A DNA stretch of 64,000 nt from Pirellulales bacterium (lineage in GTDB: Bacteria > Planctomycetota > Planctomycetia > Pirellulales > JALHPA01), in NCBI GenBank assembly GCA_033762255.1, contig JANRLT010000036.1, positions 1 through 64,000 on the forward strand. Direction: 5' to 3'. Of this stretch, positions 3,211 through 58,598 are shown one piece after another (within the stretch, counting starts at the first letter, position 1; each line of letters begins with the position of its first letter). A program made the position numbers and the translations under genes. The notes under the pieces were generated by a model. That model was not told the origin of the DNA. It saw nothing but the letters and a program-made list of their open reading frames with translations, and made no database searches.

Positions 3211-3296
3211 GTCTTAACCCCGTTTTGATTTGGGTCTGGATAGGATTAGGTCGAAGTGCAGTGAGGCAAAAGAATTTTTTAATACCGAGGTGTGCG

Positions 3297-3484: not shown

Positions 3485-5241
3485 CCAATTATATGTGGAT
3501 CCAATTGATACTGTTTGTAGGATTGCTCTTGGCTTTGGTAAAACCGCTGGGCCACTACATGGCGGGCGTCTACCGGGGAGAGTTTCGCTGGGCCGCCCCC
3601 GTGGAAGATTGGCTGTACCGCGTGGCGGGTGTGAATCCCCAAACGCAGATGACTTGGCGAGGTTACGCGGCAGCGGTGCTGACACTCAACTTCTTGGGAT
3701 TTGCCGCGTTGTACGGCATCTTGCAATGGCAGGAAATTCTGCCGGTCAATCCGCAACAGTTTTCCGCGCTGACTCCGGATTTGGCGTTTAACACCGCGAT
3801 TAGCTTTGTCTCCAATACAAATTGGCAAAGCTATGGCGGAGAGACAACGCTAAGCCATGGATCGCAAATGTGGGGCCTGACAGTGCAGAATTTTCTTAGC
3901 GCTGCCACGGGCATGGCGGTGCTTATCGCGCTCGTGCGGGGTTTTACAGGGAAATTAGCCAACACAATTGGGAATTTCTGGGTCGATTTTACCCGGTCCA
4001 TACTCTATATCTTACTGCCACTATCGGTAATTTGGGCGATATTGCTGATCGCGCAGGGAGTCCCGCAAACGCTGGCCGGTAGTGCGACAGCGCAGTTGAT
4101 CCAGCCCCTGACGGATGCCAACGGCGCGACCGTGACCGAGCAAACGATTGCCCTGGGGCCGGTGGCTTCGCAAGTGGCAATCAAGCAACTAGGGACGAAT
4201 GGAGGGGGCTTTTTTAACGTCAATTCCGCCCATCCGCTGGAAAATCCGACGCCCATTTCGAATTTCTTGCAACTGCTGGCCATATTGCTGATTCCCGCGG
4301 CATTGTGTTACACGTTTGGCGATCTGGTGGATGATACCCGCCAGGGTTGGGCGATTTTGGCCGCGATGACGATCATCTTTGTGCCGCTGTGTGTGGGAAC
4401 AATGGCCGCCGAACAATTAGGCGTTCCCGCCTATGAAAAAATGGGAATTGATCAGTCGGCCAGCGAATTTCAGTCCGGCGGCAACATGGAAGGAAAAGAA
4501 ACCCGCTTTGGCATTGCCAGTTCCGCGCTGTGGGCCACCGCCACGACCGCCGCGTCCAATGGAAGCGTGAATGCGATGCACGATTCGTTTACGCCTTTGG
4601 GGGGGCTAATTCCTATGTGGCTAATGCAACTGGGAGAAGTCATTTATGGGGGCGTGGGAAGCGGACTTTACGGAATGTTGGTGTTTGCCATCATCGCTGT
4701 GTTTGTGGCGGGACTCATGGTTGGCCGCACGCCGGAATACCTAGGCAAAAAGATCGAAGCGGCGGAGATGAAGCTGGCATCGCTGGTCATACTGATTCCA
4801 CCGTTTTTGGTGCTGATTGGTACGGCGATTTCGGTGGCGGGGCCAGGGCTGGACTATATCGGGGCCACGCCGGAAGAGATCAAATCCAATTTGAATAACC
4901 CAGGCGCGCATGGCTTTAGCGAGGTGCTGTACGCCTGGTCGTCGGCGGGAAACAACAACGGCAGCGCCTTTGCCGGCCTGACCGCCAACGAACCGTTCTA
5001 CAATACCGGCCTGGGCATCGCCATGTTTTTGGCGAGATTTGCCTTGATCGTACCGGTGTTGGCCATCGCCGGTTCGCTCGCCCGGAAAAAAGTTACTCCC
5101 GCCTCGACTGGCACGTTGCCCACGCATACACCCTTGTTTGTGGCGTTGCTGATCGGGGTGGTGCTGCTCGTGGGGGCGCTCACGTTTGTTCCCGCGCTGG
5201 CGCTCGGTCCGGTGGTGGAACACCTGCAATTTCTCGGCTAA
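3481..5241 (+). CDS. kdpA: Potassium-transporting ATPase, channel-like subunit KdpA
   Basis: This 586-residue protein with about ten membrane helices is the K+-selective pore subunit of the high-affinity Kdp pump. The four selectivity-filter regions are visible: NTNWQSYGGE near residue 112, GTNGGGFFNVNSAHP near 239, TAASNGSVNAMHDSF near 356 and AGNNNGSAFAGL near 490. I take the start at ATG 3481 (MTNYMWIQLILF) because it overlaps the kdpF stop and matches the usual KdpA N-terminus. An in-frame start 30 bases upstream would add residues not seen in the family. It is followed after 37 bases by kdpB. Confidence 0.97.
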   Translation: MTNYMWIQLILFVGLLLALVKPLGHYMAGVYRGEFRWAAPVEDWLYRVAGVNPQTQMTWRGYAAAVLTLNFLGFAALYGILQWQEILPVNPQQFSALTPDLAFNTAISFVSNTNWQSYGGETTLSHGSQMWGLTVQNFLSAATGMAVLIALVRGFTGKLANTIGNFWVDFTRSILYILLPLSVIWAILLIAQGVPQTLAGSATAQLIQPLTDANGATVTEQTIALGPVASQVAIKQLGTNGGGFFNVNSAHPLENPTPISNFLQLLAILLIPAALCYTFGDLVDDTRQGWAILAAMTIIFVPLCVGTMAAEQLGVPAYEKMGIDQSASEFQSGGNMEGKETRFGIASSALWATATTAASNGSVNAMHDSFTPLGGLIPMWLMQLGEVIYGGVGSGLYGMLVFAIIAVFVAGLMVGRTPEYLGKKIEAAEMKLASLVILIPPFLVLIGTAISVAGPGLDYIGATPEEIKSNLNNPGAHGFSEVLYAWSSAGNNNGSAFAGLTANEPFYNTGLGIAMFLARFALIVPVLAIAGSLARKKVTPASTGTLPTHTPLFVALLIGVVLLVGALTFVPALALGPVVEHLQFLG

Positions 5242-5278
5242 TTTCTCGCATTCCTAAGAGTCTTTTGGGCTTTATACT

Positions 5279-7351
5279 ATGTCCTCGACAACACAACAAC
5301 GTTCGCTTTTTGATCCGCAGATTTTATGGCCGGCGGTACGCCAGTCATTCGTCAAACTGGATCCGCGTTTGCAAATCCGCAACCCCGTGATGTTTACGGT
5401 GTTTTTGGGTAGTATCCTCACAACTTTTTTGGCAATCGCGACGGTTGGACAAACTAGCGGTGAGTCGGTTTGGTTTGTGGGGGGGATCAGTCTCTGGCTG
5501 TGGTTTACCGTGTTGTTTGCCAATTTTGCCGAGGCCATGGCCGAGGGACGGGGCAAGGCCCAGGCGGATTCGCTCCGCCAGGCCCGCCAGGACGTCCAGG
5601 CACAAAAACTTGACGCTCCCAGAAAGGATGCGGCCCGCACGGCGGTCTCGGCTTCACAACTGCGCAAGGATGACGTGGTTATTGTGGAGGCGGGCAACAT
5701 GATTCCAGCCGACGGCGAAGTGGTCGTGGGCGTGGCCTCGGTCGATGAAAGCGCGATCACCGGCGAAAGCGCGCCGGTCATTCGCGAAAGCGGCGGGGAC
5801 CGCAGCAGCGTTACCGGGGGCACACGGGTATTGTCAGATTGGCTGGTTGTGCGGGTGACGGCCAATCCGGGCGAAACTTTTTTGGATCGGATGATTTCCC
5901 TGGTCGAAGGGGCCAAACGGCAAAAAACACCTAACGAAATCGCCTTGGATATTCTGCTGGCGGCATTAACATTGGTCTTTTTGGTGGTGTGCGTCACACT
6001 GTTGCCATTTTCCAAATACAGCGTTTCCGCGGCGGGGCAGGGGACGCCCATCACCATTGCCGTGTTGGTGGCGCTACTGGTTTGCTTGATCCCCACCACC
6101 ATCGGGGGGCTGTTATCGGCGATCGGCATTGCCGGCATGGACCGGATGATCCAGGCCAATGTCATCGCCACGTCGGGACGCGCGATCGAGGCCGCGGGGG
6201 ATGTCGATGTGCTGCTACTCGACAAAACCGGCACGATTACACTGGGTAACCGCCAAGCGGTGGAGTTAATTCCCGCGCCGGGGGTCACCATCGAAGCCCT
6301 GGCCGATGCCGCGCAACTGGCCTCTTTGGCCGATGAAACGCCCGAAGGACGCAGCGTGGTGGTCCTGGCGAAGGAAAAGTATGGCTTGCGCGGAAGGGAA
6401 TTTGCCGAATCACACGCTCAATTTGTGACCTTTAGCGCGCAAACCCGAATCAGCGGCGTTGATCTGGGCGTGCGACAAATACGCAAAGGGGCCGCCGATG
6501 CCATTATAAAATTTGTTGAAGAGCAGCGGGGAAACTTTCCCGAAGCTGCCCGTAAAACCGTGGAAGACATTGCCAAACAAGGGGGGACCCCCCTGGTCGT
6601 GGCCGAAAACGAGCGCGTCCTGGGGACGATATTTTTAAAGGATATTGTCAAGCGGGGGATCAAGGAACGCTTTTCAGAACTGCGCCGTATGGGGATCAAG
6701 ACCGTCATGATCACCGGTGATAACCCCTTGACCGCCGCCGCCATCGCCGCCGAGGCGGGCGTGGACGACTTTTTGGCCCAGGCCACGCCCGAGGCCAAGC
6801 TCAAACTCATTCGCGAATACCAAGCCGGGGGGCGATTGGTGGCGATGACGGGGGATGGAACGAATGACTCTCCCGCGCTCGCCCAGGCGGATGTCGCGGT
6901 GGCGATGAACTCCGGCACGCAAGCGGCGAAGGAAGCGGGAAACATGGTTGATTTGGACTCTAACCCGACCAAACTGATCGAAATTGTCGAGATTGGCAAG
7001 CAATTGCTGATGACCCGGGGAGCGCTGACCACGTTTAGCCTAGCTAATGACGTGGCCAAGTATTTTGCCATCATTCCGGCCGCGTTTGCCAGCACCTATC
7101 CCGTGCTGAATCGCTTGAATGTGATGCAACTGGCTTCTCCCTCGAGCGCAATCCTGTCCGCGGTCATTTTTAACGCGATCATCATTGTGTTTTTGATTCC
7201 CCTGGCGCTCCGGGGGGTCAAATATCAAGCGCTCGGGGCCGACCGCTTGTTGCGCAATAATCTGCTGATTTATGGGCTAGGAGGATTGGTGGTGCCATTT
7301 GTGGGAATCAAACTCTTGGACATGATTTTGGTCGGTTTGGGCTTGGCTTAA
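5279..7351 (+). CDS. kdpB: Potassium-transporting ATPase, P-type catalytic subunit KdpB
   Basis: A 690-residue P-type ATPase that hydrolyses ATP to drive K+ uptake through KdpA. The phosphorylated aspartate lies in DKTGTIT at about residue 315. The actuator-domain TGES motif is near residue 160, and [21 protein letters not shown] is represented by its [10 protein letters not shown] hinge segment. Length and motif spacing match E. coli KdpB (phosphorylated Asp at 307). It is intact and in the usual operon position between kdpA and kdpC. Confidence 0.97.
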
Positions 7352-40966: not shown

Positions 40967-41224
40967 CTGTTTCGATTCCTATGAAAATGTCCTGACTCGG
41001 TACAATTTGCCCGCACTCTTGATACTGTGAAGAGCAAGCATACTTAACACCTAAGGACGGAATATTTGGTGTTTTAGGGAAACTCACGTGGTTGTCCCCG
41101 GCTACCGGCGGAGTGTGCAAACTGTTGGGCCTGGTTCGCGTCATGGAAACGAAATCTTGCCCACGTGCCGATGATTCTTTTCGGATTGCGGAGATGCCTC
41201 ATTTTGGCATGGGCTTTAGTCAAG

Positions 41225-42271
41225 TCATCGATTTAGTGCTTCTGTAAGTTGTGTGCTGGGGGTTGTGCGAATGCCCCAGCGTGCTGCTGCCGGGTTGAGC
41301 GCGGCCGTGGCGATGTTGAAGGCGATTCCCGCCTCGCCGCCGACCTGGTAGGCCCCGGAGTTGTAATCAACCGCGTCAAACCCGCCAAACTGGCGTACCC
41401 GCGCGGTCAGGCCAAAGGTGATCGCGTCCCCAAACCCGGCGGAAGCGTTGGTCAGGCGGGTAAACCAATCCCCCTGGGAGGGGTCGGTCAGGGCGTAGTA
41501 GCGGAATTGCAGGCCCGCGTACAACGCGCTGCCGGCTTGGCCCGGATTGGCCAGGGCATCCACAAAGTTATTGCGGGCCTGATAGGCCGTGTCAAACCAC
41601 CTGCCCGCGACCCCCCACGGATCGCGGGAATCTTGGGGCCTACTCCCGGCCGCCGTAAAGCTCCACTCGATGAGCCGGATTTCCCCCTGGGGAGATGTCC
41701 GCAGGCGTTCCAGAAAGCCCGTGATTTCGGCGGAATGTCCCGTGTTGGCGGTGAGAATGTCGTCCGCCAGGGGCTGGACGCCCAATTCCCGCACATTGAC
41801 AATCAGCGGAGTCCAAACGACATCGGGGAGCGGCATGCCGCTGTTCCCTCCGGCTTCGGCGGCATGAATCTCTTGGGCGGCGGAGAGGCTGGTGGCGAGC
41901 GCCTGATCAAGCGTTTCCCGGGCGGAGCGGGAGGTTTCGGTTACCAACAAGCCCTTTTGGACTAGATCGGCGTTGATGAGCGTAATATTGCGGTCGCGGG
42001 TCGCCGTGGCGCTGGCCACTTGGGTGTCATATTCCTTTTGGGCTTGGCCCGGTTGGCCATTTTGACCGGCGGCCAGTACGTAATCGGCATTGCCCAGCGC
42101 GGCCTGTTGGGCGGCGTAGGGATTCCCCGCCAGTTGGCTATTGGCGGGGAGGGGGGCGGTAAGATTTTTCCAACTGGTCGCCAGATCGAGCGTCAGATCG
42201 CGCTCCTCGGCAAAGATAGATTGAAGGGTGGAATGGCATAGAGATAACGTTGCGTGCTGGTTAATGCTCAT
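41225..42271 (-). CDS. Orphan partial copy of the giant protein's pre-Hint region
   Basis: A 348-residue protein. From about residue 18 (FAEERDLTLDLATSWKNL) to about residue 330 (AYQVGGEAGIAFNIATAALN) it parallels the giant protein's residues of about 2947-3273. Shared blocks include AGNPYAAQQAALG, NITLINADL, DPWGVAGRWFDTAY and FGGFDAVDYNSGAYQ. DNA similarity is also visible. It then ends with a short unique tail (RTTPSTQLTEALNR) instead of a Hint domain. It lacks every secretion or surface feature of the giant. ATG 42271 overlaps the end of the immunity gene by 11 bases; a start at 42313 would overlap more. It looks like a displaced cassette of a polymorphic toxin; whether it is expressed is unknown. 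Confidence 0.8.
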   Translation of the reverse strand: MSINQHATLSLCHSTLQSIFAEERDLTLDLATSWKNLTAPLPANSQLAGNPYAAQQAALGNADYVLAAGQNGQPGQAQKEYDTQVASATATRDRNITLINADLVQKGLLVTETSRSARETLDQALATSLSAAQEIHAAEAGGNSGMPLPDVVWTPLIVNVRELGVQPLADDILTANTGHSAEITGFLERLRTSPQGEIRLIEWSFTAAGSRPQDSRDPWGVAGRWFDTAYQARNNFVDALANPGQAGSALYAGLQFRYYALTDPSQGDWFTRLTNASAGFGDAITFGLTARVRQFGGFDAVDYNSGAYQVGGEAGIAFNIATAALNPAAARWGIRTTPSTQLTEALNR

Positions 42272-42746
42272 CACGCGGATGCCAACCTCTTTCCAGGTCG
42301 TAAATGAGAGCAATGTAATTTAAGATATGACGAATAGGCAATTCGCGTTGTTTTTTACTGATTTTACCCACTTTCCATTCCTTATTCGTCACAGAATCCC
42401 ATAACCACCATGTGGCTATATTCTGATTTTTGGGATCTTTGGAACCACCCCTAAACAAGGTAGGGATAACACAGTCTTTGGGTATCTGTAATCGCCCCAC
42501 TTTGTAAACTATGTCTCGATCCACGTATTTATCCCAATAGAAAAACGTGAAATAGCTTTCCTTCTTAGAGACAATTTCTTCAAGATCGGTAATTGACCGA
42601 TGATAAAACCCGGGCAAAACCCTGATTAAATTACCGAAAAACGGGAGTTTATTTGCGCATTGCACATAAGCGTAACCCCGACTGGTTTTAATTTCCAGTA
42701 CGTCACCGATCAAAAGATTGCGTTGGGAGATTGGCCTTTTTGGCAT
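42261..42746 (-). CDS. Putative immunity protein (Imm26-like)
   Basis: A 161-residue soluble protein starting two bases after the giant gene's stop, the usual position of an immunity gene. The pattern GDVLEIKTSRGYAYVQCANK, then LIRVLPGFYHRSITDLEEI, then VGRLQIPKD resembles my memory of the Imm26 family (GD.x.I, GYAY, late G.W/VG block), but this is not certain. The second half is Trp/Lys-rich (TWWLWDSVTNKEWKVGKISK). It is AT-rich: I count 19 G/C of 60 at 42301-42360 and 24 of 60 at 42361-42420, against 35 of 60 at 41701-41760. It probably neutralises the nuclease domain encoded directly upstream. Confidence 0.75.
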   Translation of the reverse strand: MPKRPISQRNLLIGDVLEIKTSRGYAYVQCANKLPFFGNLIRVLPGFYHRSITDLEEIVSKKESYFTFFYWDKYVDRDIVYKVGRLQIPKDCVIPTLFRGGSKDPKNQNIATWWLWDSVTNKEWKVGKISKKQRELPIRHILNYIALIYDLERGWHPRDEH

Positions 42747-42748
42747 GA

Positions 42749-45700
42749 CTAGAACCCTGGATAGCTGATTAGCTTAAGGAGTTCATTGCCATACGCCAGC
42801 ATGCGAGTGGAAAGGCGTGTGCCTCTATAAATATTATCTAGAGTGCCAGTGCCATTTACTGTTCGTCCATGGTGCTGTATGAGTGCCTGTTCAATGGCAT
42901 AGGCTTGTCGCGGTGTGAGATTGTCTGCGCCAAAGATTTTTTCGCCAGCGATCCCCGTTCTATTTAGCGCTGTCCTAGCGCGTTGGGGAAAAGTTCGTGT
43001 GGAACCACTATCCGCAATACCGACATATAGCACTTGGCCCGTGATCCGATCCCTCGATTCATACACGCACGCGTTATGCGCCCAGACGGACCAGCCCCAG
43101 TCGAGTTCTCCGACGAAGTAGGTATGATAATCGGCGACGCGGAGGTTGTAAACCGTGGCCCATTCGCCGGTGTTTTTTACCGATTCGACAGATTGCGTTA
43201 CTCCATTATGGCTGCCCAACTTGTCGCCAGGTTGCAAATCCCGCGCATTTGTCCAGCCCTTGTCCGGCAAGCCGGACCCAACCCCTCCGCCGACCACCCA
43301 GAACGGGTGTTCGGCCGTGGTGCGGACGGTTTTGCCCGCTACGCGTAGTTCCCAAATACATTCCCGTCCCTCAAATACCTCCTCCACGCGTTTGTAAACC
43401 ACCGGCCCGTGTGGGTCGCTCTCATTCCGCGTGGCGACAAAATCGTCTTCGCGGATTTGCTCGATGAAGCGGCCCCCTAGATTTGTCAACAGCGGCGTCC
43501 CCGCCGCGAAGCAGGCTTTACTGGCCCTCCAGGAGCTGGCGGCGGATTCGCCGATGGTCAGGAGACCGCCGACGATGTCGCCGTTGGACATTTGTTGGAG
43601 TCCGCCGTAGGCGCCGACGGCGGAGCCGGAGTTGATCACCCCCTGGCGCAAAACTTCCCTCCAACCGGTGGTACACTTGCTAAACCGGGCCAGACCCATC
43701 CCCCCGGCGAGCAGCAGTTGCGAATAATCGCCGGTCGCGGTGGCGGCGCTGACTCCCTGCGTTACTCCGCCGACGGTCTGGATGCCGTTGATAATCTTGA
43801 GGCCGACCTGCCCCCATTGGGTTACCTTGTATCCGGCATTGATTAGTCCCTGCGGATTCACCAGCAGCGTGGCGATGTTAAAAACCTGTCCGGCGTAGCC
43901 GCCGATCTGGTACGCCCCGGACTTGTAATCGACGGCGTCAAAGCCGCCTAAATGACGAATTCCCGCTGTGATCCCAAAGGAAATCGTGTCGCCAAACGCG
44001 GCGCCCAGGTTGGTGATGCGGGTGAAGGCGTCCCCCTGGGACCGATCAAAGAGCGAATAATAGGTAAAGCGGGCGGCCTGGGAAAGGTAGGGGATGGCAG
44101 CTTTGTTGGTAAAGTAATGCTGTGCCGCGCCGGGAACCAGGATAAAGCTGAGCAGGGTTCTCTGGTTTTCATACGCCAGGTCGTACCATTTGCCAGCCAC
44201 GCCCCAGGGATCGTTGGCTATTTGCGGCCGCGTCCGATCATGGACAAATCCCCAATGGTTGTGATTGGCCTCTCCCTGGGGATGCTGTCCCGCGGCTTTG
44301 GCCAAGGCCGCGATTTCGGCCGAGGGGCCTCCCTCTGGCGTCGGTGGCCCTGGCGGGGTCAGCGTCTCCAGGGCCAGCGGGGCAACGCCCAGAGCGGTGA
44401 TCTGGACGGCAACGGGCGCCCAGGCGACGCCGGGGAGGGGGATTTCGCTTTTGCCCTCGAGCGCGGCGGTCAGGACAACGCCCGCCGCGGCCAGTCCCTG
44501 CGATAATTTGAGTTCCAGTTGTCCCCGCGCCGCGGCGGACGTTTCGGTCACGAGGCGGGACTTTTGTTCGATGTCGGCGTTGATGAGCGTGATGTTGTGG
44601 TCCCGCGTGGCCGCGGCCTGGCCCAGGTCGCTGTCATATTCCGCCTGGGCCAGGCCAGCCTGTGCGGGTTGGCCATTTTGCGCGGGGACCCCCACGATCC
44701 GCTGGTATTCCGCCTGGCCTAGATTTGCCTGATGTTGGGCGTAGGGGTTGCCCGCCAGGGCGGGATTGGCGGGGAGGGAGGCGGTAAGATTACGCCACCC
44801 GGTCGCCAGATCAATGGCCAGGTCGCGCTCCTCGGCGAAAATAGTCGCGAGCGTGGCATAGTACTGTTGATTCTGTTCCAGTCGGGCTTGCCACTCGCCC
44901 CCGGGCGTGTTGGGTTGTGGATTGGTCCCCTTCAGAAACGCCTGTTGCTGGTCGCGGTGCTTTTGCAACAGACCCGAGGCAAGATCATATTCCAAATTGA
45001 CCTGGCCCTGGAGTAAATCGAACCTGGCCCGACCCTCTGCCTGGAGAAACGCGGCCCGGGCATCGGTCAGCGCCGCCCCCCGGCGGTCGTCATGATTTTG
45101 CAGGTGGTAATAGTAATCATCCGGTGCGAAGGTGAAGGGAAAATAGAGGTATTCGAGTAGCGCCTGGTCATTTGCGGCGTTCTTTTCGGCGCTGGCGACG
45201 GCGGCGCGGTATTTTTGGGTAGCGCCGCCACCCGTCCCCGGATCTCCCGCGCTGGGCGTGGCGGCGGGGCTTTGACCGCCACCGCGGAGCGCGGAGACAT
45301 AGGTAAATTCCAGTTCCACGCTCCGTTTGACCAGTTCTTCTTGTTTACGCAATGATTCGGCGCGGAATTCCTGTTCCTTGTCCAGGGTTTCGACGCCAAT
45401 CGCGTGGTCTTGGTCGGCTTGCCAGACAGAGAGTGATTTCCAGGCGGCGGCGATGTCGGCGTGGGTTTGCAACGTTTGCGTTTTGGCGGAGCCCCGCACC
45501 CAGGCAAGCCCGGAACTGGACCGGGTCACAAGCAGATTTGTCACCAGTTGCGCGCTGGGGGAAGCCAATTGGGGATCATTATCGAGCGATTGTAACCGCA
45601 ATAATTGTTCGGCGGCCGCGGAATCGAGAAAGTCATAATAGTCGGCCGCGGCCTGGTTGGCGCGGGCGCGTTCCTGTTCCGCGAAGCCGTTACTCACCGT

Positions 45701-48700
45701 GCGGCGCTTATCCAGGATAAGCTTTTCGACGCGGGTCTCCTCGGTGGAGGAAGAGAGTCCCGTTGCCAATTCCTGGGCGGCAAGACGCTGCTTTAGATCA
45801 CGCTCGCCGCTAGCCAGCGACAAGATGTTTTCGTCCTCGATTTTTCCTTGTTCAAGGCTGGCCTTTTCCGCGATTGTGTGATTGGCAAGGCTTAAATTCT
45901 TTTGCGCGAGGCGGGTATCGTGGGTAATTTTATAGTGATAACCCAGATAAGATGGATCGGAGGGCAGACTGGCATCGGCGGCGACACGAGCCGCGGCTAT
46001 CTGAATTTCGCGTTCCAGCCGGTCGGGAGCCTGGGGAGGGATCGCGGCTACTTTCAGGTGATGAATTCTAGCGTTGGTGGCCCGGGCGGCGGAGATACCC
46101 GCCGCTAATTGGGCATAGTTGTCACTGCGGGTTTGGATCAGTTCGGCGTATGACGCGCGCGGCCCGGAAAGCGCGGAGGCGTACTCCAGGGAAGTGGATT
46201 CTTGTAATTTGTGCATTTTCATGGCCAGTTCCTCGGCGGCCAGAAGTTGCATTTCGGCATATTCGAATTTAGAGCGCGCGGAGTCCACCTCTAGCTTTTT
46301 GGCTAGCTCACCCAGGGTATTTTGGGCCGAGTCCACCCGTAGTTGGGCGATTTGAGATTCCATTTGTTGGTTGGCGGAGCGGATGCCCTGCTCGGTGGTT
46401 CGCGAGTCGGCCAGGACGTCGAGCTTGTATTCGGCATATTCGTCCGCCAGGCCATTGATCCAAGCTAATTTCGCTTGGGCATATTTGGATTGGAATATCA
46501 AATTGAGGTTCGTGGGATTTGCCGCCAGGGCACTGTTGGCCGCGGTGACTTCACTGGTAACGATCGAGGTGATAAAAGCCCACTCCGCCGCGGCGACATC
46601 CTCCTCGAACGAAGTTTCCGCTTGGCGCGCGATCATACTGTCGACGTAATTGTTTTCGGCGGTATGGAGTTCGTCGAGATAAGTAAGTTCATCCGCGGCG
46701 GAGGCGATCAAATATGCTTTTTGGGCATTACCCAGGGTGTTCGCGGCGGTTTGCGCAGCCGTTTTGACGCTTTGCAGCCAGGTTTGATTGGCGGCTTTGT
46801 TGGCCTCCAAATACCCCTCTCCCGCCTTTGACGCATCCTTAATTCGTGATTTATCAATTTCAGTCAATGCGTCGACATGTTCCGTGAGCGCGGCGCCATA
46901 CGCGGAGACATGATCCAGAAATCCCTGTAGCAGGCCAGGCGTGGCGAGACTCGTGGTTGTGGGCGCGGTGACAAAGTTGGACGCCGCGGTTACGGACAGC
47001 GCCGTGCCGACCATGTACTGGAAGATCGCTTTGGTTCTTAAATCCGCAGTCACCGTGGTGCTGGCCGGGCCCAGCGCGCTTCCCGTTACTTCTTTTGTAC
47101 GGCGGTCCTCGTATTCAAATTCCGCAAGGGGGGATTCTAGACTCTCCCATTCGGCGGCTAGTGCCAGCCAGGCGACATCCGCCGATATTTGGTTTTTGCG
47201 GAATGTGTCGTCCGCCGTTAAATAATCCTTGGTCAAATTCGCGTTTTCGATCTGTACGTTGATCTGCGCCGTTAGCTCCGCGGCATTCTGTTTTAGCACC
47301 CGCTGACGATTGGCGTCGGCCAGGGCGGACGCGCGGATTTTGTCGGCCTGGGCGTTGGCAAACACTTCTTCACGATTTGCTTTTGCGGAAGCCTCGGCCA
47401 ATAAATAATCATTGTTTGCGCCGCGAAGGTCTTGCTGAAAATCGGCGGCGATCGTTGCGTTCGCGTAATCCAGGGCCGCGGATTGGATGGCGACTGTTTG
47501 GGTCGCGGCGGCATCCGCTAGATCGGCGACCAGGTGGCGTAGCCGGCTGGTTTCCGCGTCAGTCGCGGCATTGGCCCAGGCCCTGACCTGGGCGGGATAC
47601 TCGTGAATGGTGGCCGTGGAGTAAGTGTATTCCAGTTCCGCGATCGTTTCGGAATAATCGCGGATTTTTTCGGCTAGCGCGTTGGCGGATATTTTGGACG
47701 CGTTGGCGATTCCCAACGAATGGGTGTATTGCGCCTGCGCTAGCCCGGTGGTGTGGTTTTTAAGCAAGTCGGCTAAATTCCGCTCACGTTCGGCATGGGT
47801 CGCGGTGATAAGTTCCAGCCGCCCTTGGGGAACATTTACGCCCAAGTCCAATGCCCCCGCAAAGAGGCCGGCGATTTCCAGGTTTGCCATGGCCTTGGCG
47901 ATTTGGATGTTTTTATCCGCCGTCGTCACGGCGTAATCCTTGCCGCGTTGGGAAAGGTATTCCTGATGTTGTTTCCACAATAATCCGCTTGAGGCGGCAA
48001 AATTTTGACGTAAACCGTTTCCGGTGGTTTGGTAGTTTGCTTGAATGTCGCGCACTTGATTTAAAAACAACAGGCCCGCGGGTGTCGTCCAATCGACGTG
48101 ATAGTAGGAATCGTGTTGATTGACTTCAATATCCCGGTCACGATCCTCGTAGAGTTTATCAAGGCTAGATTGAAAGTTTTTCTTAGCGGCGATGAAATCC
48201 GTATAATAGGCCCCGGTATCATCGAGCGTGTCGATGGAATACAAGTAAAGTTCGTGTTCGATGTCCGCTAACGGGCTGGAATTGCCACCGCCCGTCCCCG
48301 AATTAATCGTGTGGAATGTATTGTGGAATGATTCCTGTAGTCCAAACTCAGCCTGGGCGGAGTTTACCTGGATCGACCGGATTTGTTCGGCGTTGGCGGT
48401 GATGGTGGCGGTCATGCCCGCCAGAAATTCGCTAGTCAACCTCGCTTCTTCATACGCCAGGCTGGCGTCCAAGAGGCGTTCATGGCTGTCGAGTTGTTTT
48501 TCGGCGGCGTAGACGTGTTTGACATAGTTTTCCCAAGCTGGCGGATAGTTGTTGTTAGCGGCCCAGGCATCGACTTTTGTGAGGTATGCGTTCCAGACAC
48601 TTGATACAAATGTCGTAAGCGATCCCTGTTCGTTTTGCGAGAAAGTTTGCTTGGCGGCCGCGGATTCCTTGACATAAGCATGTTCCGCAATCCGAATCCT

Positions 48701-51700
48701 CTTGTCGCGCGCCGCCGCGTCAATTTGATTTTGCTTTTCAGCCCTAGCGAATTCCAAACTGGTGGGATTACCGCCTTCGAAACGAACCTTGGCGAGTGCG
48801 ATTTTGTGTGATTGATTCAGGGCGGCCAGTTCGCGTTCTAGGGATAGTTTGCGGTCGGTGAGCGCGAGGTCCTGCTCCGCCAGGAGGGCGTTATGCGAGG
48901 TAAAATAGACCTCCTCCAATTCATTTCGCGCGCGAAGGTAATTCACGTGATCGTCAAAATGGATTATTTTATATCCAGAGGATTCCACGAAGTCGTGCCC
49001 GGTGATTCGAGTGTTTCCCAGCAGAGGTATGCTCATCACCGGATGGTTGAGCGCGAACTGAATTCCGCCGAATTGCTGATTGCCATTGAGTTTAAAATCA
49101 ATAAGCGTGTCAGTGGGAGCGAAGTAGTAGGGGATTCTTGGTTCAAAGACGGAACCGTTGACAACGCCATTCTCGCGCCCCAGTTGCTTGAGTTTTCCCT
49201 CTGAAAAGTTAGCCGTGACAATTCGGGGATTATCGATTCCCGCCATGGGAGCTAAGGAGGTAAAAGCGCCGCCGTTGTAACTTTTAGCCTCCAAATTCGA
49301 GAGGTTCTGGACTAGGGTCTTCCGCAATTCGATTTGCTTGACCTGAAATTCGGCGGCTTCGCGATTTGCGTCAACCGATTCCCCCAATTCGGTCAGCAAC
49401 CGTTCGCGTTGCTGACTATACGTCAGATTGATTTCATCCCGCATTCCCTCGGCATGGTTCCTGATTTTTTCCAGGTTCGCTGCATGATTGTTGGCGATCT
49501 GTTTTTTCTCGAACTCGTAATTAGACTCCAGTACTTCCAGTTCGCGAACATTTAAGGCCGTGGCCTCATCAACCAACAAGTTTTGTTCATGGATGACTTT
49601 ATCCGCTTGGCGGGTAACCGGCGCTTGTTGGATGGAGTTTCGCCAGTTCGTGGCCCTCTCGATCACCTCGCTCGCGACGTCCACGACTTCCCTGTATCGG
49701 GCATTGATGATTTCTTTGGCATTGAGATATTTGGCCTCGGCCTGCCTCAAATGCCATGCTTTTGTGACTTCCGCCGATTCCCGTTCGTAGGTCTCCTCGA
49801 TGGTGGCATATTGCAAGTCGCGGAATTTGGACTGGAAATAGCCCAGTAATCCCGGAAATCCGTCACGACCAACCAAAAAATCATGGTTCAAACCGTTATG
49901 GGTTATGTCGGCTTGGCGGTTGATCATGGCGATTGCGTGGGCCGCGTATTGCCCCGCCAGCCAGCCATCAAACTGATTAAATGTTTCCGTAATGTCTTTG
50001 TTAAGCGCAAACCAATCATTACGATGAGTTGTAATGTTATAATCAGGCGTTAGCGAACCAAGGGCATATTTCTCCAAATAAATTTTGATACGACCTGAAA
50101 TAAACAACAGGGGATTGCCTTCAAAGATGACTTTTAGTTCCTCAAAACGCGCCTGTACACGCGCCTGAAGCGAATCATCGCTTTCAATATCTGGCACCAA
50201 GACGGCCTGTTCAAACGGCGCGCGATCGCCCGCGGGAATATCATTCTGAATCAGGTTATTGGCATTCTGGACCGCGTTTCGGTCTCTTTCCCGATCAGCA
50301 ACTAAGTCCTGCATGTCAGTCAGATATTGCTGATAATAAGGCTGAAGAAATGAATTTACGCTGTAACCGCCGTCCCCATTGGCGCCGTAGTGAGAGTTCG
50401 CGTTGGCAATCTCGTTTTCTAACTCCGTATGATTCAAATCGCGAAAACTGTCGATGCCAAGCAATGATAATTCCGGCAAAGAAAAGTCGGGGCCGTAACC
50501 TTGGTCGGGACCGAACTTTAAGTCCGTGACGATCGGCGCTGGAGGTGTCGGCAACTCGGGGATTTGTGGGATTTTCCAAGGTTCCGGCAAACCGAGGGGA
50601 ATCAGCGATTGTGTCGCCAGGACAGTCGATAAATGTGTGTTGCTGGAGGACATCAAGCCGTTATACGCCGGAACCAAAACATTGTTAATGTAATTCGTCA
50701 AAGCGGTCTGGTATGCGCCGGTGGCCGTCCGCAGGGTTGCGTCCGCGGTGGTGATCAGCGACTGCAAATTACTGGCAATTTCCGTTAGCGAAAATTGCGC
50801 TCCGGTCGTGGCGGCTTTTGCCTGGGTGTTGTACTGCCGGCGCAATTCATCCAATTGATCTTGGACAGAGTGCCCGCCAGTGGCGACGCCGGGCGATTCG
50901 GTGTGTATGAAAGTTACCGTGCTCCATAGCGCCGATTCTTGATCGCGAGGTCGTATACCGATGACAATTCTGCCCAGGGGCAAATCCGCCGGGGCATAGG
51001 TAAACTCGCCATAGGCCGCGAACGTTGCGTCGGCCAGGCCATCTTGATTGGTGTCGACGATTAAATCCACGCTTTGTCCTGCGGCCAGCCCCGTGACTTT
51101 CCCATTTAGCGTGGGTTGGGAAATAAACGGAAACGTTCCCCCTGCGCCAGTTACATTTAAGCTCTCAATTCTTCGCGCGCCGTCCGCGGGTTGGGAGTTT
51201 GGGGCACCGGATACCGTTTGCCAGGCGCTAAATTGATAAGTTAAACCAACTTTTTCGCGTATTCGGAGTTTTAGCGGGATATTCGCGACGGTTTGATATT
51301 GACTGTCTTGAATACGGAACTTTCCCGTGGAGTCGGCAAAGGTCTGGATCTCGGGCTTACCGTCGTTGTTTGTGTCGATTTCAATGGTTTGCCAACCCTT
51401 TTGGGCCTGTTGGGTGATAACTTCCCCCCGAATATCAAGTTGTACCGCCGATCCATTCGCCAGTTGGGATGGAAAAGTAAGGTTATCCGCCCGTAATAAT
51501 TGTGGGGCGACCGTGGCCGCGACCGTGAATGTAAGCGCGCGAGTCACATACATACCCTGACTATCCGTGACACGGATTGTCAAAACTGCCGTACCGGGCA
51601 TTGTCGCGCTGGGTGTGATAGTTAATACGCCCGTTGCGGGATCAATTTGCGGCGCGGAACTAAATATCGCGGAGTTAGAATTACCCGTGATTGCGAAGAG

Positions 51701-53677
51701 CAGTTCGGTGTCGGAATCGCGACGGTCGTCAAAATAATGATACAGACTTACTTGTGAAGCGCTGTCACCCGTAGCGGCTATCAGTTTTGGCAACTCAAAG
51801 CTAACTGGGGGAGAACCATTCAACGAAACTTTGAAGTATGCATCCGCGCTTAATCCCACGTCGTTATACGCTCGCACGCGCAACGTGGCCTGGGCGTACG
51901 TATTTGCCTGTAGAAAATTTTGGAATCCTGAAAAATCGCCATTTAAAACCAAACGATCCGTGATCCGATTGACATCCGGTGAAATCGAAACTACCCCAAA
52001 ATGCTCCAGGTGATCGATTTCGAGCACATATCGTAGGATTTGGCTCGGATGGGTAAAGTAATCACGCAGATTCAAAGTAAGGCTGGGGGTGTTTTCCGAT
52101 ATCTCCAGGGGGATCGCATCCCCAGGCGCGAGTCCGCCGGGACCCGTGGCCGACACAATTCGATCCGGGGGCTGGGAACCAAGATAACCGTCCACGGCGG
52201 AATAATCACCGCCATTGACTTGGGCGCTACGGTCATAATCCCCCAGCAATCTGGCGTAATGAGGGGGCAGGACGCTGCCAAAAGCGGAATCAATTGGCGA
52301 GTAATCAGCCCCATCAACTCTAAAATCAAAATTTCCATCTCCGCTATAGGTATAAACCATGATTACATCTTCAGCCCGTAACTCGGATATTCCCGGGAAC
52401 AGAGGGCGGAAATTTAAATTATCCTCAAATGTAATAATCGGCGCGCCGGGACTTGAATCAAAAAATTCATTAAGGAACAGCGCGCCTGCGGTCAAAGCTG
52501 GGTTAATCAAGCCGGGCGCTTCAATAAACATCCCGCCAAAGCTGAGCATATCAAAGACTTTATTAAATACTGTTTGGCCTGCTTGGCTGGACGCGGCCCG
52601 GACGATCAGATTGTTATTCCTCGTATTCAAGAAGCCGTTGTAGACGGTTTCCTCCGGCGTACTGTGTTGTGAATCAATTTCTAAGTCAATTGTGTTCAGC
52701 GCTAGGACTTCATTGCCTCGAAATGCCATTTCCACGATCCCGAATTTATTGATCGTTAGATTGTCCAGATAATCGCTGCCGCCGAGGATCACCTTGGAAA
52801 CGAAAGGACGCCCGGGATCGGCTGGGTTCCCTCTTCCCGCGACAAAAATAGATAATTTGTCCTCGGTCTCGGAATCGGGAGAGGTGGAACAAGCGAAATA
52901 AGAATACCCCTCCAGGTTGCGCCATGTCGTGTTAGCGGGTGTGTGTGCCCAATCGTCGATAAACAGGCTTCCCGAACCATTCTTGGTGACGAGAAATTCG
53001 CCCCCGTTCGATTCCAACTCCAAGGTATGCGATCCTTCGCTGGTTACCACGAATGAAAAATTGCCACGTGTGATTTTTACCGCTCCCAGACCCGAAGTGT
53101 TAACAAAATCGAGGGTGCTTTTTGCGGTTAACTGGACCGCCATGTTGACCGTATCATTCCCAAAAGCGAAACTCTCGAACAGGATGCGATCATTTGTGCT
53201 AACCGAGATAATGTCATTTCCATGTCCTCCGGCAATCGAGTCATTTCCCGGACTCCCCACGATATTGTCATCGCCTCCCCGTCCATCCACTGAAATGTTC
53301 CAGGCCTGCGCATGGCTGCCCGCCAATCCACTTAAATCAATCGTCTCGGAGTCCTCGCTACCCAGTATGACTAAACCCGCCAAAGTGGACGGGTCGAGGG
53401 GCGTCGGGTCGGTATTTGACTTGGTAATCCATTGTCCGTTCACAAGAAGTGTGGGTGTTGGATTAGAACCCCCAATCGCCAAATGTAGGCTATTATCCGT
53501 GTCCGCCATCCGAATAGTCAGCAGATCATTGACGATCGAGTGGGAGTACATTAAGTGCCGAGGTTCCAGCGATTCCAAAGAGATCCGCCGGGAGAATTTT
53601 TCGCGGCGTGAAATCGCGTTACGGCTAACTGTGACGGCATTAAGCCGCCGACGAAGACTGCAAGGCACGCAAGCCAT
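42749..53677 (-). CDS. Giant LEPR-XLL polymorphic toxin with Hint and GIY-YIG nuclease C-terminus
   Basis: A single frame of 3642 codons from ATG 53677 (a GTG start 17 codons upstream is possible). Approximate domain order: LEPR-XLL motif SLESLEPRHLM at 33-43; RTX-like GGDDNIVG/GGHGND repeats near 133-158; beta-rich region; dockerin-like DGNFDFRVDGADY plus GDYDRSAQVNGGDY near 440-500; cadherin/Ig-like region to about 935; about 2000 residues of Ala/Glu/Gln-rich helices at 936-2940. The region 2947-3273 is shared with the downstream orphan ORF. A Hint domain starts at Cys3389 (CFAAGTPLLT) and ends VWAHNA. The last 106 residues are GIY-YIG-like. There is no classic signal peptide; LEPR-XLL proteins are taken to be exported. 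This fits a polymorphic toxin whose Hint domain may release the nuclease. Confidence 0.88.
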   Translation of the reverse strand: MACVPCSLRRRLNAVTVSRNAISRREKFSRRISLESLEPRHLMYSHSIVNDLLTIRMADTDNSLHLAIGGSNPTPTLLVNGQWITKSNTDPTPLDPSTLAGLVILGSEDSETIDLSGLAGSHAQAWNISVDGRGGDDNIVGSPGNDSIAGGHGNDIISVSTNDRILFESFAFGNDTVNMAVQLTAKSTLDFVNTSGLGAVKITRGNFSFVVTSEGSHTLELESNGGEFLVTKNGSGSLFIDDWAHTPANTTWRNLEGYSYFACSTSPDSETEDKLSIFVAGRGNPADPGRPFVSKVILGGSDYLDNLTINKFGIVEMAFRGNEVLALNTIDLEIDSQHSTPEETVYNGFLNTRNNNLIVRAASSQAGQTVFNKVFDMLSFGGMFIEAPGLINPALTAGALFLNEFFDSSPGAPIITFEDNLNFRPLFPGISELRAEDVIMVYTYSGDGNFDFRVDGADYSPIDSAFGSVLPPHYARLLGDYDRSAQVNGGDYSAVDGYLGSQPPDRIVSATGPGGLAPGDAIPLEISENTPSLTLNLRDYFTHPSQILRYVLEIDHLEHFGVVSISPDVNRITDRLVLNGDFSGFQNFLQANTYAQATLRVRAYNDVGLSADAYFKVSLNGSPPVSFELPKLIAATGDSASQVSLYHYFDDRRDSDTELLFAITGNSNSAIFSSAPQIDPATGVLTITPSATMPGTAVLTIRVTDSQGMYVTRALTFTVAATVAPQLLRADNLTFPSQLANGSAVQLDIRGEVITQQAQKGWQTIEIDTNNDGKPEIQTFADSTGKFRIQDSQYQTVANIPLKLRIREKVGLTYQFSAWQTVSGAPNSQPADGARRIESLNVTGAGGTFPFISQPTLNGKVTGLAAGQSVDLIVDTNQDGLADATFAAYGEFTYAPADLPLGRIVIGIRPRDQESALWSTVTFIHTESPGVATGGHSVQDQLDELRRQYNTQAKAATTGAQFSLTEIASNLQSLITTADATLRTATGAYQTALTNYINNVLVPAYNGLMSSSNTHLSTVLATQSLIPLGLPEPWKIPQIPELPTPPAPIVTDLKFGPDQGYGPDFSLPELSLLGIDSFRDLNHTELENEIANANSHYGANGDGGYSVNSFLQPYYQQYLTDMQDLVADRERDRNAVQNANNLIQNDIPAGDRAPFEQAVLVPDIESDDSLQARVQARFEELKVIFEGNPLLFISGRIKIYLEKYALGSLTPDYNITTHRNDWFALNKDITETFNQFDGWLAGQYAAHAIAMINRQADITHNGLNHDFLVGRDGFPGLLGYFQSKFRDLQYATIEETYERESAEVTKAWHLRQAEAKYLNAKEIINARYREVVDVASEVIERATNWRNSIQQAPVTRQADKVIHEQNLLVDEATALNVRELEVLESNYEFEKKQIANNHAANLEKIRNHAEGMRDEINLTYSQQRERLLTELGESVDANREAAEFQVKQIELRKTLVQNLSNLEAKSYNGGAFTSLAPMAGIDNPRIVTANFSEGKLKQLGRENGVVNGSVFEPRIPYYFAPTDTLIDFKLNGNQQFGGIQFALNHPVMSIPLLGNTRITGHDFVESSGYKIIHFDDHVNYLRARNELEEVYFTSHNALLAEQDLALTDRKLSLERELAALNQSHKIALAKVRFEGGNPTSLEFARAEKQNQIDAAARDKRIRIAEHAYVKESAAAKQTFSQNEQGSLTTFVSSVWNAYLTKVDAWAANNNYPPAWENYVKHVYAAEKQLDSHERLLDASLAYEEARLTSEFLAGMTATITANAEQIRSIQVNSAQAEFGLQESFHNTFHTINSGTGGGNSSPLADIEHELYLYSIDTLDDTGAYYTDFIAAKKNFQSSLDKLYEDRDRDIEVNQHDSYYHVDWTTPAGLLFLNQVRDIQANYQTTGNGLRQNFAASSGLLWKQHQEYLSQRGKDYAVTTADKNIQIAKAMANLEIAGLFAGALDLGVNVPQGRLELITATHAERERNLADLLKNHTTGLAQAQYTHSLGIANASKISANALAEKIRDYSETIAELEYTYSTATIHEYPAQVRAWANAATDAETSRLRHLVADLADAAATQTVAIQSAALDYANATIAADFQQDLRGANNDYLLAEASAKANREEVFANAQADKIRASALADANRQRVLKQNAAELTAQINVQIENANLTKDYLTADDTFRKNQISADVAWLALAAEWESLESPLAEFEYEDRRTKEVTGSALGPASTTVTADLRTKAIFQYMVGTALSVTAASNFVTAPTTTSLATPGLLQGFLDHVSAYGAALTEHVDALTEIDKSRIKDASKAGEGYLEANKAANQTWLQSVKTAAQTAANTLGNAQKAYLIASAADELTYLDELHTAENNYVDSMIARQAETSFEEDVAAAEWAFITSIVTSEVTAANSALAANPTNLNLIFQSKYAQAKLAWINGLADEYAEYKLDVLADSRTTEQGIRSANQQMESQIAQLRVDSAQNTLGELAKKLEVDSARSKFEYAEMQLLAAEELAMKMHKLQESTSLEYASALSGPRASYAELIQTRSDNYAQLAAGISAARATNARIHHLKVAAIPPQAPDRLEREIQIAAARVAADASLPSDPSYLGYHYKITHDTRLAQKNLSLANHTIAEKASLEQGKIEDENILSLASGERDLKQRLAAQELATGLSSSTEETRVEKLILDKRRTVSNGFAEQERARANQAAADYYDFLDSAAAEQLLRLQSLDNDPQLASPSAQLVTNLLVTRSSSGLAWVRGSAKTQTLQTHADIAAAWKSLSVWQADQDHAIGVETLDKEQEFRAESLRKQEELVKRSVELEFTYVSALRGGGQSPAATPSAGDPGTGGGATQKYRAAVASAEKNAANDQALLEYLYFPFTFAPDDYYYHLQNHDDRRGAALTDARAAFLQAEGRARFDLLQGQVNLEYDLASGLLQKHRDQQQAFLKGTNPQPNTPGGEWQARLEQNQQYYATLATIFAEERDLAIDLATGWRNLTASLPANPALAGNPYAQHQANLGQAEYQRIVGVPAQNGQPAQAGLAQAEYDSDLGQAAATRDHNITLINADIEQKSRLVTETSAAARGQLELKLSQGLAAAGVVLTAALEGKSEIPLPGVAWAPVAVQITALGVAPLALETLTPPGPPTPEGGPSAEIAALAKAAGQHPQGEANHNHWGFVHDRTRPQIANDPWGVAGKWYDLAYENQRTLLSFILVPGAAQHYFTNKAAIPYLSQAARFTYYSLFDRSQGDAFTRITNLGAAFGDTISFGITAGIRHLGGFDAVDYKSGAYQIGGYAGQVFNIATLLVNPQGLINAGYKVTQWGQVGLKIINGIQTVGGVTQGVSAATATGDYSQLLLAGGMGLARFSKCTTGWREVLRQGVINSGSAVGAYGGLQQMSNGDIVGGLLTIGESAASSWRASKACFAAGTPLLTNLGGRFIEQIREDDFVATRNESDPHGPVVYKRVEEVFEGRECIWELRVAGKTVRTTAEHPFWVVGGGVGSGLPDKGWTNARDLQPGDKLGSHNGVTQSVESVKNTGEWATVYNLRVADYHTYFVGELDWGWSVWAHNACVYESRDRITGQVLYVGIADSGSTRTFPQRARTALNRTGIAGEKIFGADNLTPRQAYAIEQALIQHHGRTVNGTGTLDNIYRGTRLSTRMLAYGNELLKLISYPGF
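42752..43069 (-). other. GIY-YIG-type nuclease toxin domain of the giant protein
   Basis: Residues 3537-3642 read CVYESRDRITGQVLYVGIAD and onward. GIY-YIG features are the paired strands VYES and LYVGI, an Arg-rich helix (FPQRARTALNR), a catalytic-type Glu in AYAIEQALIQHHG and an Asn in LDNIYRG. Spacing is compatible with the Y/Y/R/E/N active site. Such domains cut DNA or RNA in several polymorphic toxins. It follows the Hint domain with no linker and precedes the immunity gene. Confidence 0.75.
43070..43513 (-). other. Hint (intein-like) autoprocessing domain of the giant protein
   Basis: The domain begins CFAAGTPLLT with the conserved cysteine. It has a TxxH-type block (VRTTAEHPFWVVG) and ends YHTYFVGELDWGWSVWAHNA, close to the usual VHN/C end of polymorphic-toxin Hint domains. 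Family members cleave at this end and release the C-terminal toxin. The block between is typical of PT-HINT: GPVVYKRVEEVFEG, then WTNARDLQPGDKL. Confidence 0.88.
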
Positions 53678-54345
53678 GATGTATGTCCAGCTTCCGTGGC
53701 AAAGTCCACAACTAAAGGAAAGAAACACATGATCGGAGTATCTTCCAACTGACAGAATACCTACTCGCCCGGCATGGCTCGCAATTCCACTATCCCCATA
53801 TCAAACACCGCCGGGGAATCTATCCGCTTTTCAAACTTCGGAAAATAACCATGAATGTTAAAACTGGCCGTGGGTCGTTAACGCATTTTCATTTATTAAT
53901 TTGGAGAAAACTTTGACATTTTAACGCTGTCACACCATGCCGTCAATAAATTACTGGAAAAAGAATTTCATTAAGAACGGACAATTTTCTTGAGTTCCCA
54001 AATCGGGATAACGCTATCCGGGTAAATTCTCGACCGAGCCGGATTAATTAAGGGCCGAAAACACGATCTGCCCGGGCGTAAATGATAAGGCCAAAAATAA
54101 AGAAGCCTGTCAAATCGCCACCAACGGGCTATAGATTCTCAAAATTTATAGACGGGCTAATTTAAGAGTATCACGAGAGAATTTGTGCTCGCGATTAGAT
54201 CGAGAAAACGTTACGTCAGAAACCCCCACTGCAAAATGCGCTGCGACCAAACACGGAATCGGGTAGTTTTACATCGTCAACCGTTCCCGCAACCAGCGTT
54301 TTTCCCAGCAATTCCACAGGTGACGATAAGTGTACATTTGTTTAC
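53678..54345. other. Long AT-rich region upstream of the giant toxin gene
   Basis: No convincing gene is seen in these 668 bases; the frame at 54185-54412 runs into the tRNA and is not protein-like. The region is AT-rich compared with neighbours. A possible minus-strand -35 (TTGACA, plus-strand TGTCAA at 54109-54114) has no well-spaced -10. It probably contains the promoter and 5' leader of the giant gene. Confidence 0.35.
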
Positions 54346-57923: not shown

Positions 57924-58373
57924 TTATTTCCAAAGATAGCGTTCATCGTAAGCAATGTTGTTCTTTACAAGCAGTGCCAGTAGTTCTTCTTGAAAAGATT
58001 TTTTGCGATGGTGTTCCGCTTGCTTGCGGATGTAGTTGCGGATGATAGGAATCTGCGATTCGCTGACAGTAAATGCGGAGTATCCTTCCTGCCACGCGAA
58101 CTTACGTAATTTGAATTTTTCCTCGTTTAACCAACGCGAGGAGTTAGCCTTAATCCGATTTAACATTTGTGCCAAGGCCATGATGGGTTTGATGCGCAAG
58201 AGGATATGCACGTGGTCCGCTATTCCTCCAATTTCCAAGAAATTTCCTCCTTCGCTTTTAACGATACCTCCAATGTAGGCATACAGTTCGCCTTGAATTT
58301 CGCTTTTGATCAATGGGATTCGATTTTTTGTGCTAAAGACCAAGTGGTAAATTAAATTGGTGTATGTTGACAT
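57924..58373 (-). CDS. RAYT/IS200-like Y1 transposase (HUH)
   Basis: A 149-residue protein. It starts MSTYTNLIYHLVFSTKNR, the classic IS200/RAYT opening. The HUH pair is in IADHVHILLRI, the catalytic Tyr in IPIIRNYIRKQAEHH, and it ends YDERYLW. It lacks the OrfB partner of IS605. Directly upstream (58411-58598) is a cluster of REP-like palindromes, the usual neighbour of REP-associated tyrosine transposases. These are often domesticated housekeeping genes, so mobility is not implied. ATG 58373 matches the family; the longer frame to 58451 runs through the repeats and is rejected. Confidence 0.9.
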   Translation of the reverse strand: MSTYTNLIYHLVFSTKNRIPLIKSEIQGELYAYIGGIVKSEGGNFLEIGGIADHVHILLRIKPIMALAQMLNRIKANSSRWLNEEKFKLRKFAWQEGYSAFTVSESQIPIIRNYIRKQAEHHRKKSFQEELLALLVKNNIAYDERYLWK

Positions 58374-58410
58374 GAAAATACCTAAAAACCGCAAGGAATA
58401 GCAGCTAATA

Positions 58411-58598
58411 GCTCCGTAGGAGCGTGGTGCTGTAGCCAGGTGCGCAAGCACCTGGTATCGCGAGGTAATTCATCATGCAGCCCCGCTAGGGGCGATGTCA
58501 AGTTTGTTTGACGACGCCCCTGCGGGGCTATTAGATATCTTGTAAAAAGTTAACCGGTAGCTTGCGCTACCGGCTACAGCACATAGCTCCTACGGAGC
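58411..58598. repeat. Nested REP-like palindrome cluster (BIME-like)
   Basis: About 190 bases form a nested set of inverted repeats. The outer arms are GCTCCGTAGGAGCG... (58411-58437) and ...GCTCCTACGGAGC (58572-58598), near-identical complements over 27 bases. Inside lie CCAGGTGC-GCAA-GCACCTGG (58436-58455) and CCGGTAGC-TTGC-GCTACCGG (58554-58573), then GCCCC-GCTA-GGGGC (58480-58493) and GCCCC-TGC-GGGGC (58516-58528). Around 58494-58515 is an inverted TCAAG/TTGA core. Each small hairpin is REP-like, and the whole could fold as one cruciform. It lies 38 bases upstream of the RAYT ATG. Confidence 0.9.

What the first reader, a model, noticed from the sequence alone, without database searches (positions are those of the whole stretch)
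41225..42271. Orphan pre-Hint cassette overlapping the immunity gene
This ORF copies about 330 residues of the giant's segment just before the Hint domain, at both protein and DNA level, and then stops in unique sequence. Polymorphic toxin loci often carry displaced C-terminal cassettes that recombine to change the toxin. Here the copied part is the conserved shoulder, which would serve as the recombination arm; the toxic end is lost or replaced. It may be the scar of a past toxin exchange, or a spare arm.
Basis: partly seen in the sequence, partly recalled or inferred. Interest (0 to 1): 0.7.

Follow-up and report, generated by a model that had tools for sequence, protein, structure and literature searches.

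The report
Leftover pre-toxin piece of toxin gene
Behind a giant bacterial toxin gene and its protective gene lies a second, diverged copy of the part that normally carries the toxin, with the toxin itself gone; it is most likely debris from a past swap of toxin tips, a known kind of event seen here in a poorly studied group of bacteria.

Summary
ORF 41225-42271(-) matches residues 2957-3292 of the giant (42749-53728-): 51-54% protein identity (E 3e-92), 62% of aligned bases. Similarity starts about 26 nt after the stop of ORF 42261-42746 and ends about 20 residues before the orphan's own stop; no Hint, toxin or immunity gene follows. The giant ends in PT-HINT plus a GIY-YIG-like toxin domain. 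Toxin and next ORF recur side by side in a Rhizobium Rhs locus, supporting a toxin-immunity pair. The last ~55 residues of the copied part are a linker found just before toxins or Hint domains in other Planctomycetota. The same genome and others carry displaced tails behind immunity-like ORFs, one of them toxin-less (G781). Best reading: displaced tail of an earlier version of the gene, pushed downstream when the present Hint-toxin-immunity end arrived, its toxic end later lost. The 'spare recombination arm' is not supported: longest exact match 17 nt, against 404 bp at 96% elsewhere in this genome and 522 bp at 95% in Salmonella. The orphan shows no decay, so it was displaced recently or is still selected; this could not be decided. 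New instance of a known kind.

The parts
41225..42271 (-). Orphan ORF (348 aa from the ATG at 42271; the open frame extends to a TTG at 42313)
41291..42235 (-). Part of the orphan homologous to giant residues 2957-3292
   Evidence: BLASTP 51% over 336 columns, E 3e-92; blastn 70-75% in two blocks; codon analysis
41303..41467 (-). Pre-toxin linker at the end of the orphan's shoulder (WFTRLTNASAGFGDAITFGLTARVRQFGGFDAVDYNSGAYQVGGEAGIAFN...)
   Evidence: 54.9 bits against a profile of 13 linkers from other loci; family search
40967..41290 (-). Unique tail of the orphan (about 20 aa) and the stretch to the fasciclin gene; no toxin or immunity gene recognised
42261..42746 (-). Immunity gene, distant Imm26-like (161 aa); starts right after the giant's stop
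   Evidence: relatives in 3 other Planctomycetota genomes and 35 plasmid records; a relative scores Imm26 below its cut-off; alignment
42749..53728 (-). Giant gene, 3659 aa as listed (GTG start); N-terminal SLESLEPRHLMYS motif, long Ala-rich probably coiled-coil middle
   Evidence: the motif and the coiled-coil reading are by eye
43853..44860 (-). Shoulder of the giant (residues 2957-3292), counterpart of the orphan
43070..43486 (-). PT-HINT domain of the giant
   Evidence: PF07591, E 2.5e-15, above cut-off
42749..43075 (-). C-terminal toxin domain of the giant, GIY-YIG/URI nuclease-like
   Evidence: 35-39% identical to the C-terminus of a Rhizobium Rhs protein that matches PF01541 GIY-YIG above cut-off; the window copy itself has no Pfam match

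Best explanation
The orphan is a displaced relic of the giant's former C-terminal region. The giant is a polymorphic toxin: a long N-terminal delivery part, a conserved shoulder, a pre-toxin linker, a Hint protease, and an exchangeable toxin tip with its immunity gene. At some point an incoming DNA carrying shoulder + Hint + GIY-YIG-like toxin + immunity gene joined the giant within or at the start of the shoulder (by homology at that end, by any end-joining at the other). The resident shoulder and its older toxic end were pushed downstream, behind the new immunity gene. The displaced piece kept an open frame, but its toxin and immunity gene were then lost by deletion up to the neighbouring fasciclin gene. 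Shown: the two shoulders, their position behind the immunity gene, the missing toxic end, and the toxin-immunity pairing through a distant relative. Inferred: the direction of events, the donor, the joining mechanism and the deletion.
For: Position and anatomy: homology begins about 26 nt after the immunity stop and ends at the linker-toxin border. The linker sits directly before toxins or Hint domains in many other Planctomycetota Rhs and giant genes. Same layout elsewhere: in this genome C69 has Rhs-Hint-toxin, a small ORF, then a displaced Hint-toxin and another small ORF, and C58 has a comparable run of Hint-toxin, small ORF, Rhs fragment with another tail. G848 has three shoulder-Hint copies with small ORFs between them; G836 has an Rhs end plus linker that breaks off, then a small ORF, then another Rhs end. 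G781 has a displaced Hint-toxin and beyond it a toxin-less Rhs fragment. Exchange of tips: G780 and G781 share 1264 nt of shoulder + Hint at 95% and then carry different toxins. Toxin and immunity relatives lie side by side in Rhizobium pRLN1. Divergence: dS about 1.0 between the copies but no stop, no out-of-frame gap, and an intact linker in the orphan, as expected if they diverged in two working genes and were brought together later.
Against: No related strain shows the state before or after, and the shoulder outside the linker was found in no other genome searched. No remnant of the old toxin or immunity gene is recognisable in the 258 nt behind the orphan. The orphan's intact frame and possible start codon inside the immunity gene also fit a gene that is still in use. 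In the precedents of this genome the displaced part is the Hint-toxin end, the reverse of what is kept here.
Confidence: 0.68

Rival explanations
1. The orphan is a working gene. It is translated together with the immunity gene (start inside its 3' end) and makes a shoulder-only protein, for example one that binds the giant or takes part in its folding or export.
For: No stop over 317 aligned codons, whole-codon gaps only, and a linker that fits the family profile slightly better than the giant's own (54.9 against 50.7 bits). The ATG overlaps the immunity stop by 11 nt, and a GGAAAGAGG stretch lies upstream (by eye, sequence). In a neutral simulation the absence of stops has about 5% probability at 0.15 substitutions per site and 0.3% at 0.5.
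Against: No independent copy of such a protein was found in the genomes searched. The frame is equally expected if displacement was recent. pN/pS of 0.57 is relaxed and mixes the history of both copies. In most known orphan modules the toxin-end fragment lacks start signals (PMC3150448).
Confidence: 0.17
2. In-place tandem duplication of the giant's own 3' end (shoulder to immunity), followed by loss of part of one copy; no foreign DNA involved.
For: Same strand, tandem position, homology limited to one continuous segment.
Against: dS of about 1.0 makes it an old event, yet no degraded Hint, toxin or immunity gene remains beyond the orphan and the frame is intact, which an old non-selected duplicate would not show.
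Confidence: 0.1
3. Spare recombination arm: the orphan is kept because homologous recombination between it and the giant's shoulder reshuffles the toxin tip.
For: Such fusion is documented for Salmonella rhs (PMC3967940) and inferred for Yersinia cdi loci (PMC3150448).
Against: 62% nucleotide identity and a longest exact match of 17 nt, against 522 bp at 95% in Salmonella and 404 bp at 96% with exact runs up to 74 nt in C69 of this genome. There is no toxin behind the orphan to bring in.
Confidence: 0.03

Closest known systems
Orphan cdiA-CT/cdiI and rhs-CT/rhsI modules (Poole et al. 2011, PMC3150448; Koskiniemi et al. 2014, PMC3967940)
   Same: A fragment of the main toxin gene lies downstream of its immunity gene, on the same strand, beginning with sequence shared with the main gene and then diverging. 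Poole et al. also report fragments lacking the toxin-border motif and an immunity gene (Klebsiella variicola, Erwinia pyrifoliae).
   Different: Here only the shared upstream part is left, toxin and immunity gene are gone, the shared part is far more diverged (62% against 95% in Salmonella), and the carrier is a Planctomycetota giant with Hint, apparently neither a CdiA nor a YD-repeat protein.
Displacement model for T6SS effector-immunity modules in Vibrio cholerae (Kirchberger et al. 2017, PMC5361080)
   Same: An incoming effector-immunity module joins by homology at its 5' end and pushes the resident module downstream, leaving remnants behind the new immunity gene.
   Different: There the old immunity gene is kept and the effector lost; here the kept part is the effector's shoulder and no old immunity gene is seen.
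Tox-URI1 toxins with Imm26 (Zhang et al. 2012, PMC3482391)
   Same: The giant's tip has a GIY-YIG/URI-like sequence (Y, YVG, R, E, N), follows a Hint domain and is followed by an Imm26-like gene; that paper lists Imm26 and HINT with Tox-URI1.
   Different: The window tip matches no Pfam model itself, and the [RK]xxE position of the signature reads otherwise (by eye).

Membership tests
Orphan (displaced) module of a polymorphic toxin locus | Lies downstream of the main toxin gene and its immunity gene, same strand | tested here: met
   giant, immunity ORF, orphan in order, all minus strand
Orphan (displaced) module of a polymorphic toxin locus | Shares with the main gene a segment just upstream of the toxin border | tested here: met
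   shoulder plus pre-toxin linker
Orphan (displaced) module of a polymorphic toxin locus | Carries a different toxin domain behind the shared segment | tested here: not met
   about 20 unique residues, then nothing recognisable. So it is not a complete orphan module, only a fragment of one at most; toxin-less fragments are known as degenerate cases
Orphan (displaced) module of a polymorphic toxin locus | Followed by its own immunity gene | tested here: not met
   258 nt to the fasciclin gene, no such ORF
Polymorphic toxin (giant + ORF 42261-42746) | Pre-toxin Hint domain, then a C-terminal toxin domain | tested here: met
   PF07591 above cut-off; the toxin's relative in an Rhs protein matches GIY-YIG above cut-off
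Polymorphic toxin (giant + ORF 42261-42746) | Cognate immunity gene directly downstream | tested here: met
   conserved side-by-side pair in Rhizobium pRLN1; neutralisation itself not testable here
Polymorphic toxin (giant + ORF 42261-42746) | Same carrier with different tips in related strains | tested here: inconclusive
   shown for Rhs genes of G780/G781, not for this giant, whose shoulder was found in no other genome
Imm26 (PF15428) | Match above the curated Pfam cut-off | tested here: not met
   window protein no match; a relative 15.8 bits against 23.3
Recombining rhs/cdi orphan (spare arm) | Long stretch of near-identity with the main gene | tested here: not met
   62% identity, longest exact run 17 nt

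The most novel reading that the evidence does not exclude
The orphan is a living gene: a stand-alone shoulder protein, translated from a start inside the immunity gene, kept by selection after it lost its toxin, for example to cap, chaperone or compete with the giant's shoulder.
Probability: 0.15. Interest if true: 0.55.

Novelty: new member of a known kind. Interest (0 to 1): 0.32.

Why it matters
It extends the displaced-tail pattern known from enterobacterial cdi and rhs loci and Vibrio T6SS loci to a giant, apparently non-Rhs gene of the Planctomycetota, with parallel cases in the same genome (C69, C58) and in others of the phylum (G781, G836, G848). It points to a ~55-residue pre-toxin linker, not matched by any Pfam model here, as a marker for finding toxin tips and their orphans in this phylum. 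If the orphan proved to be under selection, it would be an unusual shoulder-only product of such a locus.

Tried and rejected
Toxin remnant beyond the orphan: a 51-residue open stretch in another frame (41077-41229) gave only hits at the level of chance (29 of 249 genomes at E below 0.1, including its own; best other hit 0.002) and no Pfam match. DNA copies of 40967-41330 elsewhere in the genome: none of note. Extension of the homology into the 26 nt before it: not better than shuffles. Same shoulder in other genomes, GTDB contigs, viral contigs and plasmids: none beyond the linker. Search for the empty site by synteny: the NmrA-like gene is found in G004, G006 and G007, but none of the other six queries, including fasciclin and ClpB, lies near it there. 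GC profile of the giant: gradual rise towards the shoulder, no step at residue 2957. Structure of the shoulder: mean pLDDT 37, unusable. Promoter and terminator scan: no more hits than in shuffles.

Full report
The window is bases 1-64000 of contig C36 of a 5.47 Mb draft genome. Its nearest held relatives are one genome of the same family and others of the same order.

The observation. The ORF 41225-42271(-) and giant residues 2957-3292 align over 336 columns with 51% identity and E 3e-92; at DNA level two blocks match at 70% (322 nt) and 75% (174 nt). Over 317 aligned codons nucleotide identity is 62%; differences are 33%, 29% and 53% at codon positions 1, 2 and 3; NG86 gives pS 0.56, pN 0.32, dS 1.03, dN 0.42; the longest exact shared run is 17 nt. 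In the MAFFT protein alignment every gap is a whole number of codons. The rest of the genome has no further copy. So the relation is real, far beyond chance, and old. The alignment begins about 26 nt after the stop codon of ORF 42261-42746; the stretch before that is not alignable to the giant better than shuffles. It ends about 20 residues before the orphan's stop and, in the giant, about 120 residues before the Hint domain.

What the locus is. The giant has a PT-HINT domain (residues 3415-3553; PF07591, E 2.5e-15) followed by about 110 residues that are 35-39% identical to the C-terminus of a Rhs protein on Rhizobium plasmid pRLN1, and that relative matches PF01541 GIY-YIG above cut-off. The ORF after the giant (42261-42746) has a relative directly behind that Rhizobium toxin, which supports a toxin-immunity pair; a planctomycetal relative resembles Imm26 below the cut-off. 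Zhang et al. 2012 (PMC3482391) list Imm26 and HINT with Tox-URI1 toxins. The window proteins themselves match neither GIY-YIG nor Imm26 in Pfam.

What the copied part is. Outside this genome only its last ~65 residues are found; 392, 397 and 298 genomes were searched with profiles and 98 with the protein (overlapping sets), plus GTDB, viral and plasmid collections. In the loci fetched, this segment (consensus NfaAGwgDtltfGlTsyiRkglgydDvvDyeSgaYaaGqvvG) mostly lies near the end of Rhs or giant genes, before a toxin or a Hint-toxin end. One of them, G778, is a giant of similar make-up with linker and a Hint-like stretch. The orphan therefore stops just where a toxic tip should begin.

Comparable loci. 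In this genome, C69 has Rhs-Hint-toxin, a small ORF, then a displaced Hint-toxin (404 nt at 96%, exact runs up to 74 nt) and another small ORF; C58 has a Hint-toxin end, a small ORF, then an Rhs fragment with another tail. In G781 the main Rhs-Hint-toxin is followed by a small ORF, a displaced Hint-toxin, another small ORF, and an Rhs fragment that breaks off without a toxin. G780 and G781 share 1264 nt at 95% and then differ in the toxin. G848 has three shoulder-Hint copies in a row with small ORFs between, one apparently shifted out of frame; parts of that record read N. G836 has an Rhs end plus linker that breaks off a few residues later. The small ORFs are taken as immunity genes from position, not by test.

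Timing. In a neutral simulation of the 317-codon stretch, absence of stops falls to about 5% at 0.15 substitutions per site and 0.3% at 0.5 (composition and ts/tv assumed, indels not modelled). The copies differ by 38% of bases. The orphan's linker scores 54.9 bits, the giant's 50.7, against a profile built from 13 other linkers (those were collected with a profile of both window copies, so the test is fair between the two but not independent). So the orphan evolved as coding sequence for a good part of the divergence: either the two copies diverged in separate working genes and met recently, or the orphan is still in use. The first needs no new function and has precedents, so it is preferred; the second is not excluded.

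Mechanism. The model of Kirchberger et al. (PMC5361080), homology at the 5' end and illegitimate joining at the other, explains the order giant-immunity-old shoulder. Poole et al. (PMC3150448) describe orphan fragments with varying lengths of shared upstream sequence, including some without the border motif and immunity gene. Koskiniemi et al. (PMC3967940) propose recombination over 522 bp at 95% for main-orphan fusion; the present pair is far below that, so the orphan is not a usable arm today.

Membership. The orphan meets the position and shared-segment features of a displaced module but lacks the toxin and immunity gene that define a complete one. It is filed as a degenerate fragment of that kind, not as an orphan toxin module.

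Limits. No sister strain was available; the direction of events, donor and deletion are inferred. Hint and toxin homology is by sequence only. The structure prediction was uninformative.

Noticed in passing
L014 (contig C69 of the same genome), 2-3829, 3753-4292, 4315-5094, 5075-5479, + strand: Rhs-Hint-toxin gene followed by a small ORF, a displaced Hint-toxin end (404 nt at 96%) and another small ORF; this pair does have a stretch long enough to recombine. The contig's ends share 79 identical bases.
   Followed up: partly
L015 (contig C58 of the same genome), 115-5153, + strand: Hint-toxin end, small ORF, then an Rhs fragment with a different C-terminal tail and a small ORF: a second array of displaced tails.
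   Followed up: partly
L045 (G781), 2835-6617, - strand: Rhs-Hint-toxin, small ORF, displaced Hint-toxin, small ORF, and a toxin-less Rhs fragment; G780 (L046) carries the same shoulder and Hint with another toxin.
   Followed up: yes
L075 (G799), 932-3227, + strand: Row of small ORFs, one related to the window's immunity protein (34%), without a toxin gene in the 3.4 kb held: possible immunity array.
   Followed up: no
L074 (G024), 1489-1962, - strand: Relative of the window's immunity protein (36%) with no toxin gene next to it in the 3.4 kb held.
   Followed up: no
window 57924-58451, - strand: ORF that looks like a small REP/IS200-type transposase (by eye), between the ClpB-like and DnaK-like genes.
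   Followed up: no
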